Source: Lysobacter antibioticus
GTDB taxonomy: Bacteria; Pseudomonadota; Gammaproteobacteria; Xanthomonadales; Xanthomonadaceae
Direction: 5' to 3'
NCBI RefSeq assembly: GCF_001442535.1
Contig: NZ_CP013141.1
Location: 815,907 to 879,906, forward strand
Length of the DNA: 64,000 nucleotides
The notes below the pieces were generated by a model. The model saw only the letters and a list, made by a program, of their open reading frames with translations. It was not told the origin of the DNA and searched no databases. How positions within the stretch are numbered: position 1 is the first letter of the stretch; every line of letters begins with the position of its first letter. The position numbers were made by a program, and so were the translations under genes. Shown here one piece after another: positions 2,931 through 11,384 of the stretch.

Positions 2931-3411
2931 TGGATCCAGATCTTGATCTTGCTTGTGAGCGATGCGCCGCAAGACCGAAACGGCGCGGTCGCGGCTCGCG
3001 CCGCTCCTACCCTGCGAAAGCACGCCGCTTCGATGAGAGACATCGGCGTTGTCGTCTCTGCGCATTCCTTGGTCGCGGCTTGTAACCGGAGGAAATCCCT
3101 GTGGGACGCCGCTCCTACCCTATGAGGGCTCGCCGCTTCGATGATGCGATATCGGCATTGCGGTTACTGCGCGTCCCGCAGTCGCGGCTTGCGCCGCTCC
3201 TACCCAGAAACCATGGGCCGCCATCGGCACAAGCAAGAGAAAGAAGAGAAGGTCACCACGAGCGGCCACCGACGCCCTCCCTGGCGCCGACGCCATTCAA
3301 ACCGTGCGGATCGGGCTATCCCCATAACCCTTTCCGTCTTCTTACAGCTTCCCTTCCCCTGATTGCGCCTTCCAGGCGCTTACCCCCACCGAGTGCCTGA
3401 CGGCCGCGTTC

Positions 3412-4286: not shown

Positions 4287-6317
4287 ATGAACCACGTTCG
4301 CGCCGTATTGGCGCTCGGCATCGCTGCGGCCGTCATCGGCCTGGCCGGATGCAAGAAAGACCCCACCCCCTCCTCCAGCACCACGGCCGCCGCCGCGCCG
4401 GAAGGCGAGACCGCCGACCAGTTCATCGCCCGCGTCAACGACGAATACAAGAAGATGTATCCGGAGATGACCTCGGCACAGTGGTTGTCCTCGACCTATA
4501 TCAACGACGACAGCCAGCTGCTCTCGGCCAAGGCCAACGAGCGCTACCTGACCCAGCTCAACAGCTGGATCGAACAGTCGAAGAAATTCGAAGGCCAGCA
4601 GATGTCGCCCGCCAGCGCGCGCGCGATCCAGTTGCTGAAGATCGGCACCTCGATGCCGGCGCCGAAAGACCCGGCCAAGCTCGCCGAACTGACCCAGATC
4701 GCCACGCGCATGGAAGGCATGTACGGCTCGGGCACGTATTGCAGCGGCACCGGCGACACCGATTGCCGCCAGCTCGGCGATCTCGAAGACGTGCTGCGCA
4801 ACAGCCGCGACTACGACGCCCAGCTCGACGCATGGAAGGGCTGGCACACCATCTCCAAGCCGATGCGCAAGGACTACACGCGCTTCGTCGAACTGGTCAA
4901 CGAAGGCGCGCGCAACCTCGGCTATGCCGACACCGGCGAGCTGTGGCGCTCCGGCTACGACATGAGCCCGGTCGAGCTCGCCGCCGAAACCGACCGTCTC
5001 TGGGGCCAGGTCAAGCCGCTGTACGAACAACTGCACTGCTACACCCGCTCGCGCCTGGAAGCCAAGTACGGCGCCGACAAGGGCGAGACCACCGGCGGCA
5101 TGCTGCCGGCGCACCTGCTCGGCAATATGTGGCAGCAGGACTGGGGCAACATGTGGGACGTGCTGGCGCCGTACACCGAGCAGCAGGCCGGCAGCCTCGA
5201 CATCAACGGCGCGCTGGCACGCCAGTACCAGCACAACTTCGACCTGCAGACGGCGAAGAACCCCGGCGACCGCGCCGCCGACGAACAGGCGCAGATCGAA
5301 GTCGACGCCAACCTGGCCAACGCCAAGCAGATGACCGAGCGCGCGCAGGACTTCTACGTCTCGCTCGGCATGCCCAAGCTGCCCGACAGCTATTGGAGCA
5401 AGACCCAGTTCATCAAGCCGCGCGACCGCGACGTGGTCTGCCACGCCAGCGCCTGGGATATGAACATGGGCGGCGACGTGCGCACGAAGATGTGCATCAA
5501 GCCGAACGAAGAAGACTTCACCACGATCTACCACGAGCTCGGCCACGTCTATTACTACCTGGCCTACAACAACCAGCCGCCGTTGTTCCAGACCGGCGCG
5601 CACGACGGCTTCCACGAGGCCATCGGCGACACCATCGTGCTGGCGATGACGCCGAAGTACCTGCAGTCGATCGGCCTGGTCGGCAGCCAGCAGCAGAGCA
5701 ACGAGTCGCTGATCAACGCGCAGATGCGCATGGCCCTGGCCAAGGTCTCGTTCCTGCCGTTCGGCCTGATGATCGACCGCTGGCGCTGGGGCGTGTTCGA
5801 CGGCTCGATCAAGCCGGGCGAGTACAACAAGGCCTGGTGGGAACTGAAGGCCAAGTACCAGGGCGTGGCCCCGGTCGAGGCGCGCGGCGAAGAGTTCTTC
5901 GACGCCGGCGCCAAGTACCACGTGCCGGGCAATACGCCGTACACGCGTTACTTCCTCTCGCACGTGCTGCAGTTCCAGTTCTACAAGTCGCTGTGCGACG
6001 CGGCCGGTTTCAAGGGCCCGCTGTACGAGTGCAGCTTCTACGGCAACAAGGCCGCCGGCGCGAAGTTCCAGGCGATGCTGAGCAAGGGCGCCAGCCAGCC
6101 TTGGCAGCAGACCATGAAGGAACTGACCGGCGGCGAGAAGATGGATGCCTCGGCAGTGCTCGAATACTTCGCGCCGCTGCAGACCTGGCTCAAGCAGCAG
6201 AACGAAGGCCAGAGCTGCGGTTGGCAGGCTTCGGCGGCAGGCGCGCCCGCGCCGGCCGGCGCCAAGCCGGCAGCGGCCAAGCCCGAGGCGAAGGCAGGCA
6301 AGCCCGCACAAGGCTGA
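4287..6317 (+). CDS. M2-family peptidyl-dipeptidase (ACE-like), lipoprotein
   Basis: A 676-residue zinc peptidase related to angiotensin-converting enzyme, a family that removes dipeptides from peptide C-termini. The N-terminal signal ends in a lipobox (LAGC, Cys22), so the protein should be lipid-anchored in the envelope. The zinc motif HELGH is at residues 416-420 and the third ligand Glu444 lies 24 residues later in EAIGD, the spacing of the M2 family. The FxTGAHDGFHEAIGD context is also typical. An Ala/Pro/Lys-rich tail follows the catalytic domain. The start is fixed by GGAGAG upstream of ATG 4287. The gene stands alone and ends in a strong intrinsic terminator. The most likely role is periplasmic peptide degradation. 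Similar enzymes are known from Xanthomonas. Confidence 0.93.
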   Translation: MNHVRAVLALGIAAAVIGLAGCKKDPTPSSSTTAAAAPEGETADQFIARVNDEYKKMYPEMTSAQWLSSTYINDDSQLLSAKANERYLTQLNSWIEQSKKFEGQQMSPASARAIQLLKIGTSMPAPKDPAKLAELTQIATRMEGMYGSGTYCSGTGDTDCRQLGDLEDVLRNSRDYDAQLDAWKGWHTISKPMRKDYTRFVELVNEGARNLGYADTGELWRSGYDMSPVELAAETDRLWGQVKPLYEQLHCYTRSRLEAKYGADKGETTGGMLPAHLLGNMWQQDWGNMWDVLAPYTEQQAGSLDINGALARQYQHNFDLQTAKNPGDRAADEQAQIEVDANLANAKQMTERAQDFYVSLGMPKLPDSYWSKTQFIKPRDRDVVCHASAWDMNMGGDVRTKMCIKPNEEDFTTIYHELGHVYYYLAYNNQPPLFQTGAHDGFHEAIGDTIVLAMTPKYLQSIGLVGSQQQSNESLINAQMRMALAKVSFLPFGLMIDRWRWGVFDGSIKPGEYNKAWWELKAKYQGVAPVEARGEEFFDAGAKYHVPGNTPYTRYFLSHVLQFQFYKSLCDAAGFKGPLYECSFYGNKAAGAKFQAMLSKGASQPWQQTMKELTGGEKMDASAVLEYFAPLQTWLKQQNEGQSCGWQASAAGAPAPAGAKPAAAKPEAKAGKPAQG

Positions 6318-6365
6318 GCCCGAGCATCGCAGTGCTCTCGCGGCGTCCGCGTCCGCAAGCGACAG

Positions 6366-6395
6366 AAGAAAAACCGGCTTCGGCCGGTTTTTCTT
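6366..6395 (+). terminator. Intrinsic terminator, bidirectional
   Basis: A perfect 13-bp stem (AAGAAAAACCGGC / GCCGGTTTTTCTT) with a TTCG loop lies 48 bp after the M2 peptidase stop. Its A/T arms make it work on both strands, so it also closes the minus-strand HNH/ATPase operon ending at 6410. Confidence 0.93.
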
Positions 6396-6409
6396 TGTCC
6401 GCGAGACGA

Positions 6410-7336
6410 TTAAGCGCCGACCGCGTCGGCCTGCTCGGCCTTACTTTCGAGTAACTCGCGATAACGCGCGAGCAGCTCGCCTTCGGCCACGATGACGAAG
6501 GCCCGCGTCATCGCCGTGAACTCTTCGTCCGCGCCGGCCATCGCCAGCAGTTGCGCGCGTTTGCGCGCGGCCCGCTGCAGGGGACGGGCGCGCTGCGCGG
6601 GTGCCGCGACCGCGGCCTCGTCCAGGGCTTCGGCGATGTCGAACGACAGATCGTTCAAGCGCTGCAGATGGCGGGTGCGCGCCTCGACCAGGGCCTGTCG
6701 ATTGAGCGCCATGATGCGGATCGTGTGTTCGCCGTAGGCATCGGCGACGGCGCCGTGGAAGCTCGGGCTCAGCAGCGACAGATCGGTGTCGGTATGCCAG
6801 GCCAGATGCGGGCCGGGATCGCGCCGGGTCGGGTCGATCAGCAAAGGGTCTTCGCGGTCGCAGTCGTCGCCCGGCTTGAACGCCCGAACCGCCGACACCG
6901 GGAACGCGTTGCCCTTGCCCACGCTCTGCACTTTTTGCGCGGCCAGTTGCGCAGCGGTCATGCCGGCTTCGGCGATCCGGTGGCCTTCGACGCGATTGCA
7001 GCCGATGCAACTGCGCAGCAGATTGTCCCAGTCGGCCGCGAGCCACCAATAGCCGCGATGGCCGGGTTCGCCGTCAACGCCGGCCTTGGGACGGTAATGC
7101 TCGATGTCCGCCGACGAAGTCGCCTCGTGCAAGGATTCGCAGTACGCGCACTTCTTCTTGAACAGCTCGCGCAGCGCCTCTTTGACGTCGGGCCGCTTAT
7201 AGGCCTTGAAGGCGAAAGTCTCGGCCTTCGGGTCCAGGTAATGCTTCGAGGCTTTCTCCAGTTCGCGCCGGCCGGCGCCGTCCGGGTCGACCAGCGAAGC
7301 CGGCGCCCGCACCGACTTGCGATCCACGAACCTCAT
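6410..7336 (-). CDS. HNH endonuclease, Septu PtuB-like partner of the upstream ATPase
   Basis: A 308-residue nuclease with an intact zinc-finger HNH core: CAYC (Cys63, Cys66), the catalytic-type segment DIEHYRPK (His80), WDNLLRSCIGC (Asn105, Cys110, Cys113), then LLIDPTRRDP. This layout is that of the HNH proteins paired with ABC-type ATPases, such as PtuB in the Septu defence system. The start at 7336 overlaps the ATPase stop as ATGA, so the two are translationally coupled. The longer in-frame extension upstream runs inside the ATPase gene and is not used. The protein probably cleaves nucleic acid when released or activated by the ATPase (inferred from Septu). No signal peptide was seen. Assignment to a defence role is by gene arrangement and motifs, not by a database match. 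Confidence 0.82.
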   Translation of the reverse strand: MRFVDRKSVRAPASLVDPDGAGRRELEKASKHYLDPKAETFAFKAYKRPDVKEALRELFKKKCAYCESLHEATSSADIEHYRPKAGVDGEPGHRGYWWLAADWDNLLRSCIGCNRVEGHRIAEAGMTAAQLAAQKVQSVGKGNAFPVSAVRAFKPGDDCDREDPLLIDPTRRDPGPHLAWHTDTDLSLLSPSFHGAVADAYGEHTIRIMALNRQALVEARTRHLQRLNDLSFDIAEALDEAAVAAPAQRARPLQRAARKRAQLLAMAGADEEFTAMTRAFVIVAEGELLARYRELLESKAEQADAVGA

Positions 7337-9525
7337 TCGTGGGCTCCCGCTGCGGCGCCCGCGCTCAACAGGGCCACGATTTCCTCGAGCGCGTCCTCGC
7401 GCATCGCCGCACGCTCGGCACCGCCGCGACGGCGGCGATCGTTGAGATAACGCTGGGTGGCCTCGCCGACGAGTTGCTCGACGGGCGTGTCGCCTAGCGG
7501 CAGGCCCGCGAGTTGCGCCGCCAGCGCGCCGCGTTCGCGCTGCTCGCCGGCATCGAGCGCGGGCTTGCCGAGCAGATAGGCATAGCGATGCAGGGCCGCA
7601 TCGGTCTGCGGCCGCGCGGTGCTGGCCAGGCCGAAGAAGTCCGAGGTCAGCAACTGGTCGCTGCGCAACAGCTCGATGTTCGGCAAGTCTTCGCGCGGCC
7701 GGATGCGGTCGTGCTGGTCGCGGTACAGCACGTGCACCTCGCCGTCGCGCATGCCGCGCAGGCACAGCGCGTCGTGGGCGGTGACGATGAATTGCACCTT
7801 CGGCATCGCTCGCCGCAGCGCCGACATCACCTCGATCTTCCAGCGCGGGTGCAGGTGCACGTCGATCTCGTCGATCAGGACGATGCCCTGCGCGTATTCC
7901 AGGTTGCCCCAGGCGTCGACCATGCGCCGCATGATGTCCACGGCCATCGCGAACAGGGAGCGATAACCGTCGCTCATGCGCTCGACCGGGGTCACGCGGC
8001 CATGGGCCCGCACCATCACGTGGCCGCCGGGGCCGCGGAAGATGTCGTCGTCCTCGTGCAAGGAGAGCACCTCGCGCATCGCCCGGGCCACCGCGTTGAA
8101 ATGCTGCCGGCTCGCCTCGACCAGCCACGGCGAGGGATCTTCCAGTTTGGCGAAGGGGTCGAACAGACTGCGGTTGACCGCGTTCTTGTGGATGCGCTCG
8201 TGCGAGCGGAAGAAGCGCCGCGCGCCATAGGCCAGCACCATCGACGGCACCGCGTCGCTGTAGGTCTCGATGCGGCCGAGCGAATCGATCTCGATGCGGC
8301 GGGTGTCGCCGGACGACAGCAGCACCTCGACATAGGGCCGGTCGGTCAGCACCTCCCAGGATTCGCGCTGGCGCGGCAGGAAATCGGCACCCTCGACCCG
8401 GCTGCCCTTGCGCAGGCGCTCGTCCATCAAGGCCAGCGCCAGCGCCTGCAACACCGTGCTTTTACCGGCGGCGTTCTCGCCGAGCAGCATCACCCCGGAG
8501 GCATTGCTGTCGGAGGCCTGGGCATGGGCGAACTCCAGCTCCAGGGTGTCGATGCCCTTGAAGTTGAAGATGCGCACGCGTTCGACGTGGGACGGGTCCA
8601 GCCTGGGCCTGAGTTCGTAGTACTCGCCCACCGCGCTCCGCAGAGATTCGGAGATCGGCGTTTTGTCCGCGCCCGACAGATATTCGTAGGCGACCCGGTC
8701 CCAGACCTCATGGTGTCCGGCCAGGCGCGGAATGTCGCGCGAGGGGCGGAAGCCGACGATGGGCTTGAGCCCGGCCCGGCGCGCGGTTTCCTTGGCCACC
8801 GCGTCGAGCGCGGAACGGATCGCGCCGCTGTGCCGGAGGTTGTCCAACTCGTCGATCAATCCGATCGTGACCGGTTCGGCCTCCGGATCGATCGCCTGAT
8901 GGACAGTGCTCAGCAGGTCGAAGATCCATTGGCGTCGCGCCTCCACCAGGCGCGGACGGTTGAGGTTCAACACCTCGATGCTCGCCGCGCCCTTGTCGGT
9001 CTTGCCGACTAAGCCGCCATCGGGCAGGAATGCCAGATGCCGCGCGGGGTCGTCGCGGCAGGGATCGATCAGCAATGCGTTCTCGCTCGCGACCGTCTGC
9101 CGCCACGCCGTCATCGGCAAGGCGCGCGGCGTGTCGACCGGGAACAGATTGCGCTTGGCCGAGACGCATTCGTTGCAGGCATACATCAGGTTGCGCCATT
9201 CGAACGCCAGCCAACCGTAGTGGTCGGGGCTTTCCTCGCGCGTGCGTGGATCGGCCGCGGCCAGGATCGGGCGGAACGGATCGATGCGGCTTTCGTGCAT
9301 CTGCAGGCCGGATTCGCAGTACGCGCATTTGCTCTTGAACTGCGCGTCCAGAGCCGCGTACACGTCCTCGCCCAGGAACAACGGCTCGTAGCGCTCGAAC
9401 GGCGCGCGCTGGCGCTGGCGCTCCTCGGCCGGGCGACTGTAGAACGCGGTGATTTCGCGGGCCCAGTCGAGCAATTCCGGCCGGCGCAACGACGGCGGCG
9501 TCGCCAGCCTTTTCACTTTCCTCAT
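7333..9525 (-). CDS. HNH-like domain fused to ABC/AAA-type ATPase, Septu PtuA-like
   Basis: A 730-residue two-domain protein. Residues 60-150 copy the HNH fold of the downstream nuclease: CAYC (67-70), WRNLMYACNEC (Cys117, Cys120) and LLIDPCRDDP. The central motif, however, reads RIDPFRP, with Pro83 where the partner has His80, so this domain is probably catalytically dead. Residues 320-640 form an ABC-type ATPase: Walker A GENAAGKST (Lys355), signature-like MSDGYRS, Walker B LIDEID (Glu553), and the H-loop TAHD. It resembles PtuA-type and OLD-type ATPases but without a Toprim domain. The start at 9525 has GGAGG 8 bases upstream. It is the first gene of the operon and is coupled to the HNH gene. 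It likely senses phage or DNA and controls the nuclease. The function is inferred. Confidence 0.82.
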   Translation of the reverse strand: MRKVKRLATPPSLRRPELLDWAREITAFYSRPAEERQRQRAPFERYEPLFLGEDVYAALDAQFKSKCAYCESGLQMHESRIDPFRPILAAADPRTREESPDHYGWLAFEWRNLMYACNECVSAKRNLFPVDTPRALPMTAWRQTVASENALLIDPCRDDPARHLAFLPDGGLVGKTDKGAASIEVLNLNRPRLVEARRQWIFDLLSTVHQAIDPEAEPVTIGLIDELDNLRHSGAIRSALDAVAKETARRAGLKPIVGFRPSRDIPRLAGHHEVWDRVAYEYLSGADKTPISESLRSAVGEYYELRPRLDPSHVERVRIFNFKGIDTLELEFAHAQASDSNASGVMLLGENAAGKSTVLQALALALMDERLRKGSRVEGADFLPRQRESWEVLTDRPYVEVLLSSGDTRRIEIDSLGRIETYSDAVPSMVLAYGARRFFRSHERIHKNAVNRSLFDPFAKLEDPSPWLVEASRQHFNAVARAMREVLSLHEDDDIFRGPGGHVMVRAHGRVTPVERMSDGYRSLFAMAVDIMRRMVDAWGNLEYAQGIVLIDEIDVHLHPRWKIEVMSALRRAMPKVQFIVTAHDALCLRGMRDGEVHVLYRDQHDRIRPREDLPNIELLRSDQLLTSDFFGLASTARPQTDAALHRYAYLLGKPALDAGEQRERGALAAQLAGLPLGDTPVEQLVGEATQRYLNDRRRRGGAERAAMREDALEEIVALLSAGAAAGAHE

Positions 9526-9539
9526 GCAGCCCCTCCGCA

Positions 9540-9640
9540 GGGCATTGGCGGCCGCAAGCGGCCCGGGCATTGGCGGCCGCAAGCGGCACACGTATCAGCG
9601 GCCGCAGGCGGCACATGTATCAGCGGCCGCAAGCGGCTTG
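9540..9640. repeat. Four tandem 25-bp repeats with inner dyad, upstream of the HNH/ATPase operon
   Basis: The core GCGGCCGC starts at 9548, 9573, 9598 and 9623, an exact 25-bp period. Each unit holds the inverted repeat GCCGC-AA-GCGGC (AG in the third copy). Units 1 and 2 share the flank GGGCATTG, units 3 and 4 share TATCA. The array sits 15 bp upstream of the ATPase start and upstream of the divergent amidohydrolase, so an operator or protein-binding array is plausible (inference). There are no unique spacers, so it is not CRISPR. Confidence 0.9.
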
Positions 9641-9830
9641 GGCCTCCGTGGCTGCGCCGGGCCGCGGATCGCCGTCATTATGGACATGGCGCGGTCTGGC
9701 GGAATGGCATTCGGTCCGAGATCGCGAAGCCGGAGCGATGCCGGCCTCGGGCACAATGCCGATGCGGCCTGCGCTTGCGCCGCTTCCCGTCCTGGCCGTC
9801 CCTGCGGCGGCCGCGCTCCCGGAGTTCCGC

Positions 9831-11267
9831 ATGCCCCCGTCGATCCGCCTGTCCGCCGCCTTGCTGCTCGCGCTTTCGTCTTCGGCCGTTGCCGCCGAAC
9901 GCGTCGACCTGTTGATCCGGCATGCCAACGTGGTCGACGTGGTCGACGGCAAGACCCGCACCGACCGGACCATCGCCGTGCGCGGCGATCGCATCGTCGC
10001 CATCGTCGACGACCCCAAGGCCAAGCGCTACCAGGCCGGGCAGACCGTCGAAGCCCAGGGCAAATACGCGATCCCGGCGCTGTGGGACATGCACGTCCAC
10101 TTCGGCGGCGGCGACAAGCTGATCGAAGAGAACAAGAACCTGCTGCCGCTGTACCTCGCCCACGGCATCGCCGCGGTGCGCGACGCCGCCGGCGACCTCA
10201 GCCCGAGCGTGTTCGAGTGGCGCGACGCGATCGCCGCCGGCCGCCTCGACGGCCCGACGATCTACACCTCCGGCCCGAAGCTGGAGGGCTACAAATCGAT
10301 CTGGCCCGGCGACATCGAAGTCGGCAACGCCGCGGAGATTTCCAAGGCGCTCGACCGCTTGCAAGCTTGGAAGGTCGATTTCGTCAAGATCACCGACAAC
10401 ACCTTGTCGCCGGAGCTGTTCCTCGACGCCCTGAAGCAGGCGCATGCGCGCGGCCTGCGTACCTCGGCGCACGTGCCCTTCAGCCTGACCATCGACACGG
10501 TCAGCGCGGCCGGGCTCAGTTCGATCGAACACATCGACTACGCCTACAAAGCCGGCTCGCCGCAGGAAGCCGAAATCGGCGCGATGGTCGCGCGCGGCGA
10601 GATCGACAGCCGCGAAGGCTGGAACCGGATCCAGGCCAGCTTCGACGAGGACACCGCGCGCGCCGCCTATCGGCGCCTGGCCCAACGCGGCACCGCGGTC
10701 ACCCCGACCCTCAACGGCAGCTTCGTCACCACCTATCTGGATCGCGACGATCACCGCGGCGATGCCTATCTGCGCTACATCGGCCCCGGCCTGCAGGCGA
10801 CCTATGCCTGGCGCGTCGAACGCGCGGCCAAGGACGACGCCGTGGCGATCGAGCGCCGACACCAACGCTACGAACGCAGCGCGGCGATCCTGCCCTTGCT
10901 GCAGTCCTCCGGGGTCGCGATCCTCGCCGGCACCGATGCGGGCTTCCTGAACTCTTTCAATTACCCCGGCATCGGCCTGCACGACGAGTTGCAGCGCTTC
11001 GTCGACAACGGCCTGACCCCGTTGCAGGCGCTGCAGGCGGCGACCATCAACGGTGCCCGCTTCCTGGGCCAGGAGCGCCTGCACGGCCGTCTCGCCGCCG
11101 GCAAGGCCGCCGATATCGTCCTGCTCGACGCCGACCCGCTGCGCGACATCGCTGCCACGCGCCGCATCGATGCCTTCGTGTTGCGCGGCAAGGTCCACGA
11201 TCGCAAGGCGCTGGATGCGATGCTGGAGGACGTGCGCAAGAAGGTGGCGGCGCAGACCGCGCCCTAG
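9831..11267 (+). CDS. Secreted metal-dependent amidohydrolase
   Basis: A 478-residue amidohydrolase-superfamily enzyme with a cleavable signal peptide (residues 1-22, ending AVAA). The TIM-barrel metal-site motifs are in order: DMHVH (His88, His90), TSAHVPF, SSIEHIDY, and LAGTDAGF with the catalytic aspartate. The C-terminal GKAADIVLLDADPL segment rebuilds the small beta-sandwich domain. Its closest relatives are imidazolonepropionase-like and Xaa-Pro dipeptidase-like amidohydrolases, which are often periplasmic in xanthomonads. The substrate cannot be told from sequence. The start was chosen at the ATG at 9831, preceded by GGAG. An open frame upstream to 9570 only reads through the 25-bp repeats. 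The gene is probably monocistronic and is followed by REP-like units. Confidence 0.88.
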   Translation: MPPSIRLSAALLLALSSSAVAAERVDLLIRHANVVDVVDGKTRTDRTIAVRGDRIVAIVDDPKAKRYQAGQTVEAQGKYAIPALWDMHVHFGGGDKLIEENKNLLPLYLAHGIAAVRDAAGDLSPSVFEWRDAIAAGRLDGPTIYTSGPKLEGYKSIWPGDIEVGNAAEISKALDRLQAWKVDFVKITDNTLSPELFLDALKQAHARGLRTSAHVPFSLTIDTVSAAGLSSIEHIDYAYKAGSPQEAEIGAMVARGEIDSREGWNRIQASFDEDTARAAYRRLAQRGTAVTPTLNGSFVTTYLDRDDHRGDAYLRYIGPGLQATYAWRVERAAKDDAVAIERRHQRYERSAAILPLLQSSGVAILAGTDAGFLNSFNYPGIGLHDELQRFVDNGLTPLQALQAATINGARFLGQERLHGRLAAGKAADIVLLDADPLRDIAATRRIDAFVLRGKVHDRKALDAMLEDVRKKVAAQTAP

Positions 11268-11273
11268 CTCTTT

Positions 11274-11384
11274 GTAAGAGCGACATCCTGCTGGATGTCC
11301 TTCGGTCATGAGTCGCGTCCGAGCATCTACGCTTGCGTCGTCGTTGCGAGGTCGCAGTCGCGGCTTACGCCGCTCCTACCCTTA
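11274..11384. repeat. REP-like pair (one long, one short unit)
   Basis: The first unit (about 11274-11318) has the long form, with GAGCGACATCC, the inner core TGGATGTCCTTCGGTCATGAG and closing GTCGCG. The second (about 11351-11384) is a short hairpin reading GTCGCGGCTTACGCCGCTCC on plus. Both match the units that border elements A and C. They separate the ends of the convergent amidohydrolase and AraC genes, a usual REP location. Confidence 0.75.

What the first reader, a model, noticed from the sequence alone, without database searches (positions are those of the whole stretch)
6410..9525. Septu-like cassette in which the ATPase carries an inactive copy of its partner's HNH domain
The ATPase has an N-terminal HNH-like domain with the same CxxC...CxxC frame and LLIDP motif as the separate HNH protein, but the central His is Pro83 (RIDPFRP against DIEHYRP). 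The downstream HNH is intact and coupled by ATGA overlap. Known Septu PtuA proteins are ATPases without this fused domain as far as I know. A dead HNH copy could be a docking or decoy module that holds or senses the active nuclease.
Basis: partly seen in the sequence, partly recalled or inferred. Interest (0 to 1): 0.78.

Follow-up and report, generated by a model that had tools for sequence, protein, structure and literature searches.

The report
Septu ATPase carrying a dead nuclease
This is a two-gene bacterial phage-defence cassette of the Septu kind in which the ATPase carries a second copy of its partner nuclease, with the fold kept but the active site lost, as in many relatives, so the spare copy probably works as a holder or sensor rather than a cutter.

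Summary
Observation confirmed. Window 9525-7333(-) encodes a 730-aa PtuA-type ATPase whose first ~213 residues are a PtuB-type HNH domain (hhalign E 1.9e-44); the motif His is Pro83. An intact PtuB (7336-6410) follows with an ATGA overlap. The 'dead copy' reading is right in direction, wrong in two details: the fused architecture is already in PADLOC's PtuA models, and relatives often keep the His (104 of 119 aligned proteins; 39 of 74 non-redundant loci). The wider pattern is stronger. All 92 loci with a fused ORF also hold a separate HNH ORF. Across 74 non-redundant pairs the separate PtuB keeps acid-His-Asn in 74, the fused copy in 13, while the four zinc cysteines and the middle Asn never change. 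The window's fused domain is under purifying selection (dN/dS 0.10). Of 30 ordinary PtuAs sampled, 29 are whole and lack the domain. Best reading: an old duplication fused PtuB to PtuA, and the fused copy became a pseudo-nuclease that seats or regulates the active PtuB. Fold and pattern are shown; docking is inferred.

The parts
7333..9525 (-). PtuA-type ATPase with fused N-terminal PtuB-like (HNH) domain, 730 aa
8887..9525 (-). Fused pseudo-HNH domain, residues 1-213; zinc cysteines C67, C70, C117, C120 and W110-x-N112 kept; last catalytic Asn is Val121
   Evidence: hhalign A1 against A2 E 1.9e-44; AF2; conservation. Zinc binding itself is inferred from the cysteines.
9277..9279 (-). Codon 83, Pro in place of the HNH motif His (RIDPFRP)
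   Evidence: Read; alignment.
8593..8886 (-). Linker, residues 214-311; with the C-terminal tail the least conserved part between Lysobacter alleles (13-57% per 30-residue block in the six less close pairs shown)
7456..8592 (-). ABC-type ATPase domain, about residues 312-690: Walker A GENAAGKS 349-356, signature S518-x-G520, Walker B D552-E553, H584
   Evidence: G349, E350, N351, K355, S518, G520, D552, E553 and H584 invariant in the 47 sequences of A1, G354 and S356 nearly so; Pfam AAA_21 E 5.5e-17; fold. Motif names are recalled.
7333..7336 (-). ATGA overlap of ATPase stop and HNH start
   Evidence: a 4-base overlap in 37 of 94 ORF pairs, with the partner start placed approximately.
6410..7336 (-). 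Separate PtuB-type HNH nuclease, 308 aa, intact E79-H80...N105...N114
7097..7099 (-). H80 codon of the partner (DIEHYRP)
4287..6317 (+). Flanking Peptidase_M2 gene (not part of the system; marks one side of the site)
   Evidence: Pfam E 2.5e-208; present in 20 of 20 genus genomes.
9831..11267 (+). Flanking amidohydrolase gene (marks the other side of the site)
   Evidence: Pfam E 3.3e-20; present in 15 of 20 genus genomes.

Best explanation
A two-gene Septu variant. Shown by sequence and predicted fold: the ATPase carries a PtuB-like domain at its N terminus, and a complete PtuB gene follows directly; the fused copies and the free copies form two groups that arose by an old duplication; the free copy stayed a complete HNH nuclease, while the fused copy kept its cysteine-knuckle fold but was released from catalytic constraint and lost acid, His or last Asn many times, in the window's lineage the His (now Pro83) and the last Asn (Val121). 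Inferred: the fused copy is a pseudo-nuclease subunit. It occupies a PtuB seat on the PtuA assembly, or pairs with the free PtuB, and so holds the active nuclease in register and in check until ATPase-driven rearrangement, on phage infection, lets it cut DNA or tRNA as in known Septu. The N-terminal part of the ATPase, with the pseudo-HNH and the variable linker, would be the part that tunes this control.
For: All 92 loci with a fused ORF (window and near-copies included) hold a separate HNH ORF; all 94 fused-partner ORF pairs lie on one strand, 88 of 94 within 60 bases (partner starts placed approximately). Of 74 non-redundant pairs: partner acid, His, last Asn and K84 in 74 of 74; fused acid-His-Asn in 13 of 74, His lost in 35, none of the three in 19; the N105 position is Asn in 74 of 74 of both. 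Of 199 shared columns ranked by how much more conserved they are in the partner, K84, N114, D77, E79 and H80 fall in the top 11, while the four Cys, Y96, N105 and P83 are invariant in both and W98 and W103 nearly so. Parsimony needs 12 changes of the His state among fused copies (FastTree tree from residues after about 215). The domain is not decaying: window against L003, dN/dS 0.10 for the fused domain, 0.063 for the ATPase, 0.105 for the partner. Fused copies lie on one side of a branch (SH-aLRT 78), all partners as one clade are not rejected (p-AU 0.92), both apart from 20 of 23 ordinary PtuBs (99). Known assemblies hold fewer PtuB than PtuA (entry titles 4:2 and 2-1; 6:2 in a review table), so a PtuB-like seat could be filled by a fused copy (inference).
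Against: No complex was predicted, so contact between fused copy and partner is untested. 13 of 74 fused copies keep acid-His-Asn, 10 of them also K84, so in some lineages the fused copy may still cut. A drifting active site on a kept fold fits substrate binding as well; net charge on the shared columns does not separate the two (fused +1.6, partner +1.1, sd about 5). Support for one side of a branch for the fused copies is 78, not strong. The fused domain is less conserved overall (mean 0.38 against 0.45), so part of the drift is a faster rate in general.
Confidence: 0.5

Rival explanations
1. The fused copy is a substrate-recognition module: it binds DNA or tRNA with the HNH surface, without cutting, and presents it to the free PtuB.
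For: R85, P86, W110 and N112 and the four cysteines are invariant in the 47 sequences of A1 and close to equally conserved in both copies over 74 pairs.
Against: The position of K84, invariant in the 74 partners, is K in only 13 of 74 fused copies; net charge on the shared columns is about the same as in the partner.
Confidence: 0.2
2. The fused copy is a backup or second nuclease, active in lineages that keep the triad and decayed elsewhere by drift, with no essential role.
For: 13 of 74 fused copies keep acid-His-Asn; losses are scattered over the tree (10 changes of the full-triad state); the fused domain is less conserved overall than the partner.
Against: The four cysteines are kept in every fused row that has letters there; dN/dS is 0.10 in the window's lineage; the partner keeps its triad in 74 of 74 pairs, so the two copies are not interchangeable.
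Confidence: 0.15
3. Integrated decoy: the fused PtuB mimic is bait for phage proteins that attack or bind PtuB, and triggers the ATPase when bound, as integrated decoys do in plant NLR receptors (analogy recalled).
For: A catalytically dead mimic of the effector sits on the signalling ATPase; in one pair of Lysobacter genomes the first ~500 residues of the ATPase gene are a divergent block (44-75% nt identity) while partner and most of the flanks are 86-98% alike, which looks like allele exchange.
Against: One exchange event only; the most variable stretch of that block is the linker (211-310) more than the pseudo-HNH; no phage protein that binds PtuB was searched for.
Confidence: 0.1

Closest known systems
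Septu (PtuA/PtuB), e.g. E. coli Septu, PDB 8eea
   Different: PtuA carries a PtuB-like domain of about 213 residues at its N terminus; of 30 ordinary loci sampled, 29 PtuA ORFs are whole and none has it.
Retron I-A effectors PtuA/PtuB (Ec78/Eco7, Ec83)
   Different: No reverse transcriptase gene between the flanking Peptidase_M2 and amidohydrolase genes; no Rfam match at gathering score in 6000-10200; the NCBIfam retron PtuA and PtuB cut-offs are not reached.
PADLOC PtuA1 models PDLC00288, PDLC00292, PDLC00291
   Same: Match through the fused domain (973.5, 536 and 455.3 bits); the N terminus of PDLC00292 also matches the separate HNH protein (163.5 bits).
   Different: Listed as 'AAA ATPase domain' only; the passages of the PADLOC paper that I saw (PMC8565338) do not mention an HNH domain on PtuA.
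ptuXYZ operon (PMC11980606)
   Same: PtuA-like ATPase paired with nuclease genes (passages).
   Different: Its first gene product PtuX is said not to resemble PtuB; no HNH on the ATPase is described in the passages that I saw.

Membership tests
Septu (PtuAB) | PtuA ABC-type ATPase with Walker A/B | tested here: met
Septu (PtuAB) | PtuB HNH nuclease with motif His and Asn (H75 and N91 essential in Septu Ec-B88, passage of PMC13096335; their match to H80 and N105 here is inferred) | tested here: met
Septu (PtuAB) | Adjacent two-gene operon, ptuA then ptuB | tested here: met
   ATGA overlap.
Septu (PtuAB) | PtuA without an N-terminal HNH domain (usual layout) | tested here: not met
   contrast with 30 ordinary loci. 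It is therefore filed as a variant.
Septu (PtuAB) | Protection against phage | not testable with these tools
   Needs experiment.
Retron I-A | Reverse transcriptase and msr-msd next to ptuAB | tested here: not met
   The stretch between Peptidase_M2 and amidohydrolase is filled by the two genes; no Rfam match at gathering score in 6000-10200. A reverse transcriptase elsewhere in the genome was not looked for.
HNH nuclease (as an active enzyme), the fused domain alone | acid-His ... Asn ... final Asn/His | tested here: not met
   D82-P83 ... N112 ... V121: His and final Asn both absent.
HNH nuclease (as a fold), the fused domain alone | beta-beta-alpha with two CxxC | tested here: met
   hhalign E 1.9e-44 to PtuB; AF2 elements.

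The most novel reading that the evidence does not exclude
An immune ATPase with an integrated decoy of its own effector: the fused, catalytically dead PtuB senses phage proteins aimed at the real PtuB, or sets the ATPase's trigger by competing with the real PtuB for one seat, and is exchanged between strains as a specificity module.
Probability: 0.12. Interest if true: 0.85.

Novelty: new variant of a known kind. Interest (0 to 1): 0.57.

Why it matters
If the fused copy is a pseudo-nuclease that seats or gates the active one, this is a Septu branch, found here in Pseudomonadota, Bacteroidota, Bacillota, Acidobacteriota and Actinomycetota, in which one protein family supplies both the cutter and its regulator. 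It offers a natural, replicated experiment on how PtuB is held and released: lineages differ in which catalytic residue the fused copy lost, while the cutter kept its own in all 74 non-redundant pairs.

Tried and rejected
'His always lost in the fused copy' was tested and rejected. 'A peculiarity of this genome' was rejected (13 of 395 family genomes, own included; 80 loci kept of 194 in genome contigs). A class-wide search with A1 found only the window (1 of 369); at most 2 candidates per genome were scored in the rows shown, there and, so both are lower bounds. The viral collection gave one locus (L136). Foldseek and VIA with the whole ATPase model list matches dominated by the ATPase part, so the fused domain was not confirmed by fold search alone. 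Net charge gave no discrimination.

Rows left out of the 74-pair counts: L002 (the window's own locus again, ATPase cut), L065 (ATPase cut at the locus start), L026 and L033 (ATPase frame broken), L027 (partner in two ORFs), L063 and L069 (partner fragmentary); this leaves 88, and near-copies by shared 4-mers were then removed, 88 to 74. Loci were fetched with a fused query, so '92 of 92' speaks to partner presence, not to how often PtuA is fused. In the TIGR02646 sample of 398 genomes the fused arrangement shows by frame length in at least 3 (G000, G632, G670), each with a second hit beside it; G632 and G670 were not opened.

Literature: the listings of searches (several capped; 31 very broad) show no title or abstract on a PtuA with a fused or dead HNH domain. 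Passages, not whole texts, were seen in PMC8565338, PMC13096335, PMC11555353, PMC11980606 and PMC12948488. Two main structure papers (PMC12318543, PMC12240667) are not held and may describe it; no supplements were read.

Full report

2. The fused domain. ATPase residues 54-213 match the neighbour protein directly (E 2e-17), and residues 1-213 match the PtuB profile A2 at E 1.9e-44. The four cysteines are there; the motif reads RIDPFRP where the partner has DIEHYRP, and the Asn after the second CxxC is Val121. So two of the catalytic positions are gone, not only the His.

3. How general. One search lists 120 of 376 homologues; with the window's own, 119 of 121 have letters at the motif: His in 104 of 119, and the four Cys, Arg85, Pro86, Trp110 and Asn112 in all 119. 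This list leans to near relatives. Of 95 loci examined (L001-L095: 80 kept of 194 from genome contigs, and those; the window itself and near-copies included), 92 hold one fused ORF, and all 92 also hold a separate HNH ORF. Counts over all fused rows: acid D/E 45 of 92, His 45 of 92, last Asn 29 of 93. Over partner rows: acid E 96 of 98, His 97 of 98, middle Asn 96 of 96, last Asn 94 of 96; the exceptions are pieces of the broken fused genes of L026 and L033 that the script filed as partners, and the fragment in L069. On 74 non-redundant pairs: partner acid-His-Asn 74 of 74; fused 13 of 74; His lost in 35; none of the three left in 19.

4. It is the active site that drifted most. Of 199 columns shared by both copies, ranked by excess conservation in the partner, the top 11 hold K84, N114, D77, E79 and H80 of the partner; the others there are F43, G140, Y46, W97, E25 and H93. 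Of the four textbook positions (E79, H80, N105, N114; recalled) three are in the top 11; by hand arithmetic chance gives that about 5 times in 10,000. N105 is the exception: invariant in both copies. The four cysteines, a Tyr, a Phe and several Pro, Glu and Arg columns are equally fixed in both. Overall conservation is lower in the fused copy (0.38 against 0.45), so some drift is general.

5. History. In a tree of 74 fused, 74 partner and 23 ordinary PtuB domains, fused copies are one side of a branch (SH-aLRT 78), 73 of 74 partners one clade (97), and 20 ordinary PtuBs stand apart (99); holding all 74 partners together is not rejected (p-AU 0.92). The other three ordinary PtuBs (L113, L117, L120) fall with the fused-and-partner group; two of the three have a whole unfused PtuA (404 aa in L113; 548 aa in L148, the longer fetch of L120), the third runs off its contig. 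Parsimony on a tree from residues after about 215 needs 12 changes for the fused His, 10 for the acid, 12 for the last Asn. Gains and losses are not told apart, but the partners vary in none of the three. Against L003 (96% identical) the window's fused domain has dN/dS 0.10, the ATPase 0.063, the partner 0.105: it is maintained. Over longer distances (other Lysobacter alleles) the fused domain's ratio is about 0.3-0.4, that of the partner 0.28-0.61 against the window, so neither is exceptional.

6. Contrast with ordinary Septu. TIGR02646 marks 67 of 398 phylum genomes at E 1e-5, 32 of them over its cut-off. In the 30 loci opened (the best matches), no ATPase ORF shows the fused domain as far as it reaches; after fetching more DNA for the 15 that ran to the locus edge, 29 of 30 are whole, 404-667 aa long by first start codon, and one is cut by its contig.

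7. Where it sits. The cassette lies between a Peptidase_M2 gene and an amidohydrolase gene. Of 20 genus genomes, 20 have the first and 15 the second, neighbours in all 15. Eight hold the cassette there; four have 0.3-0.4 kb between the genes, one 0.7 kb, and two carry a Tle1-like phospholipase ORF instead. So this is a swap site for accessory genes, as expected for a defence cassette.

8. Module exchange. Two genomes of the genus (G301 and G205; L134 and L135) are 86-98% identical (one window 100%) over the last third of the ATPase gene, the partner gene and most of the flanks, with a dip to 73% just after the partner, but 44-75% from about 60 bases before the ATPase start to about residue 500 (I take the low first and last windows as end effects). 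The partner differs by dN 0.022, the fused domain by dN 0.35 (L087 against L088). This looks like replacement of the N-terminal module by recombination. It is one event.

9. Mechanism. Known Septu needs both the ATPase motifs and the PtuB H-N-H motif (PMC13096335, passage) and cuts DNA or tRNA-Tyr depending on the system (PMC11555353 passage; abstract of PMC13096335). Known complexes hold fewer PtuB than PtuA. I infer that the fused copy fills or shapes a PtuB seat and so controls the one true PtuB. No call shows the contact. The rivals (recognition module, drifting spare, integrated decoy) are set out with tests.

10. Verdict. Observation confirmed; interpretation partly supported. A new variant of Septu: present in PADLOC's models without remark in what I saw, and not described in the listings and passages of the papers that I could search.

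Noticed in passing
window 6318-9830, between Peptidase_M2 and amidohydrolase genes: Accessory-gene swap site in the genus: of 15 genomes with both flanks, cassette in 8, Tle1-like phospholipase ORF in 2 (G138, G090), 0.7 kb in 1 (G309), 0.3-0.4 kb in 4.
   Followed up: partly
L134 and L135 (G301, G205): First ~500 codons of the ATPase gene replaced between two loci otherwise mostly 86-98% identical.
   Followed up: partly
window 9541-9637: Tandem repeat, 25-base unit, 3.9 copies, directly upstream of the ATPase start.
   Followed up: no
window about 2294-2323, 2986-3013, 3175-3205, 11353-11381: Short pieces of about 24-31 bases that match DNA just past the partner gene in L006 and L084 at over 93% identity; possibly a dispersed repeat of the genus (BLAST pieces).
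   Followed up: no
L026:6001-8197: In Variovorax sp. YR216 the fused gene lies in two frames, a 197-aa HNH-like ORF and a 533-aa ATPase ORF; a broken gene or a natural split.
   Followed up: no
L136:5959-11412: The one viral-collection locus carries the cassette beside a phage-type integrase ORF.
   Followed up: no
L084 and L095 (genome G263): One genome of the genus holds two fused cassettes of different subfamilies, 66% and 33% identical to the window's; the second was flagged with one TGA inside.
   Followed up: no
L054, L059, L060, L062, L071, L073, L075, L076, L077, L079, L081: In a 16-row subclade (support 100) 11 fused copies read Tyr-Arg where the partner has Glu-His; so constant a replacement may be a gained function rather than drift.
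   Followed up: no
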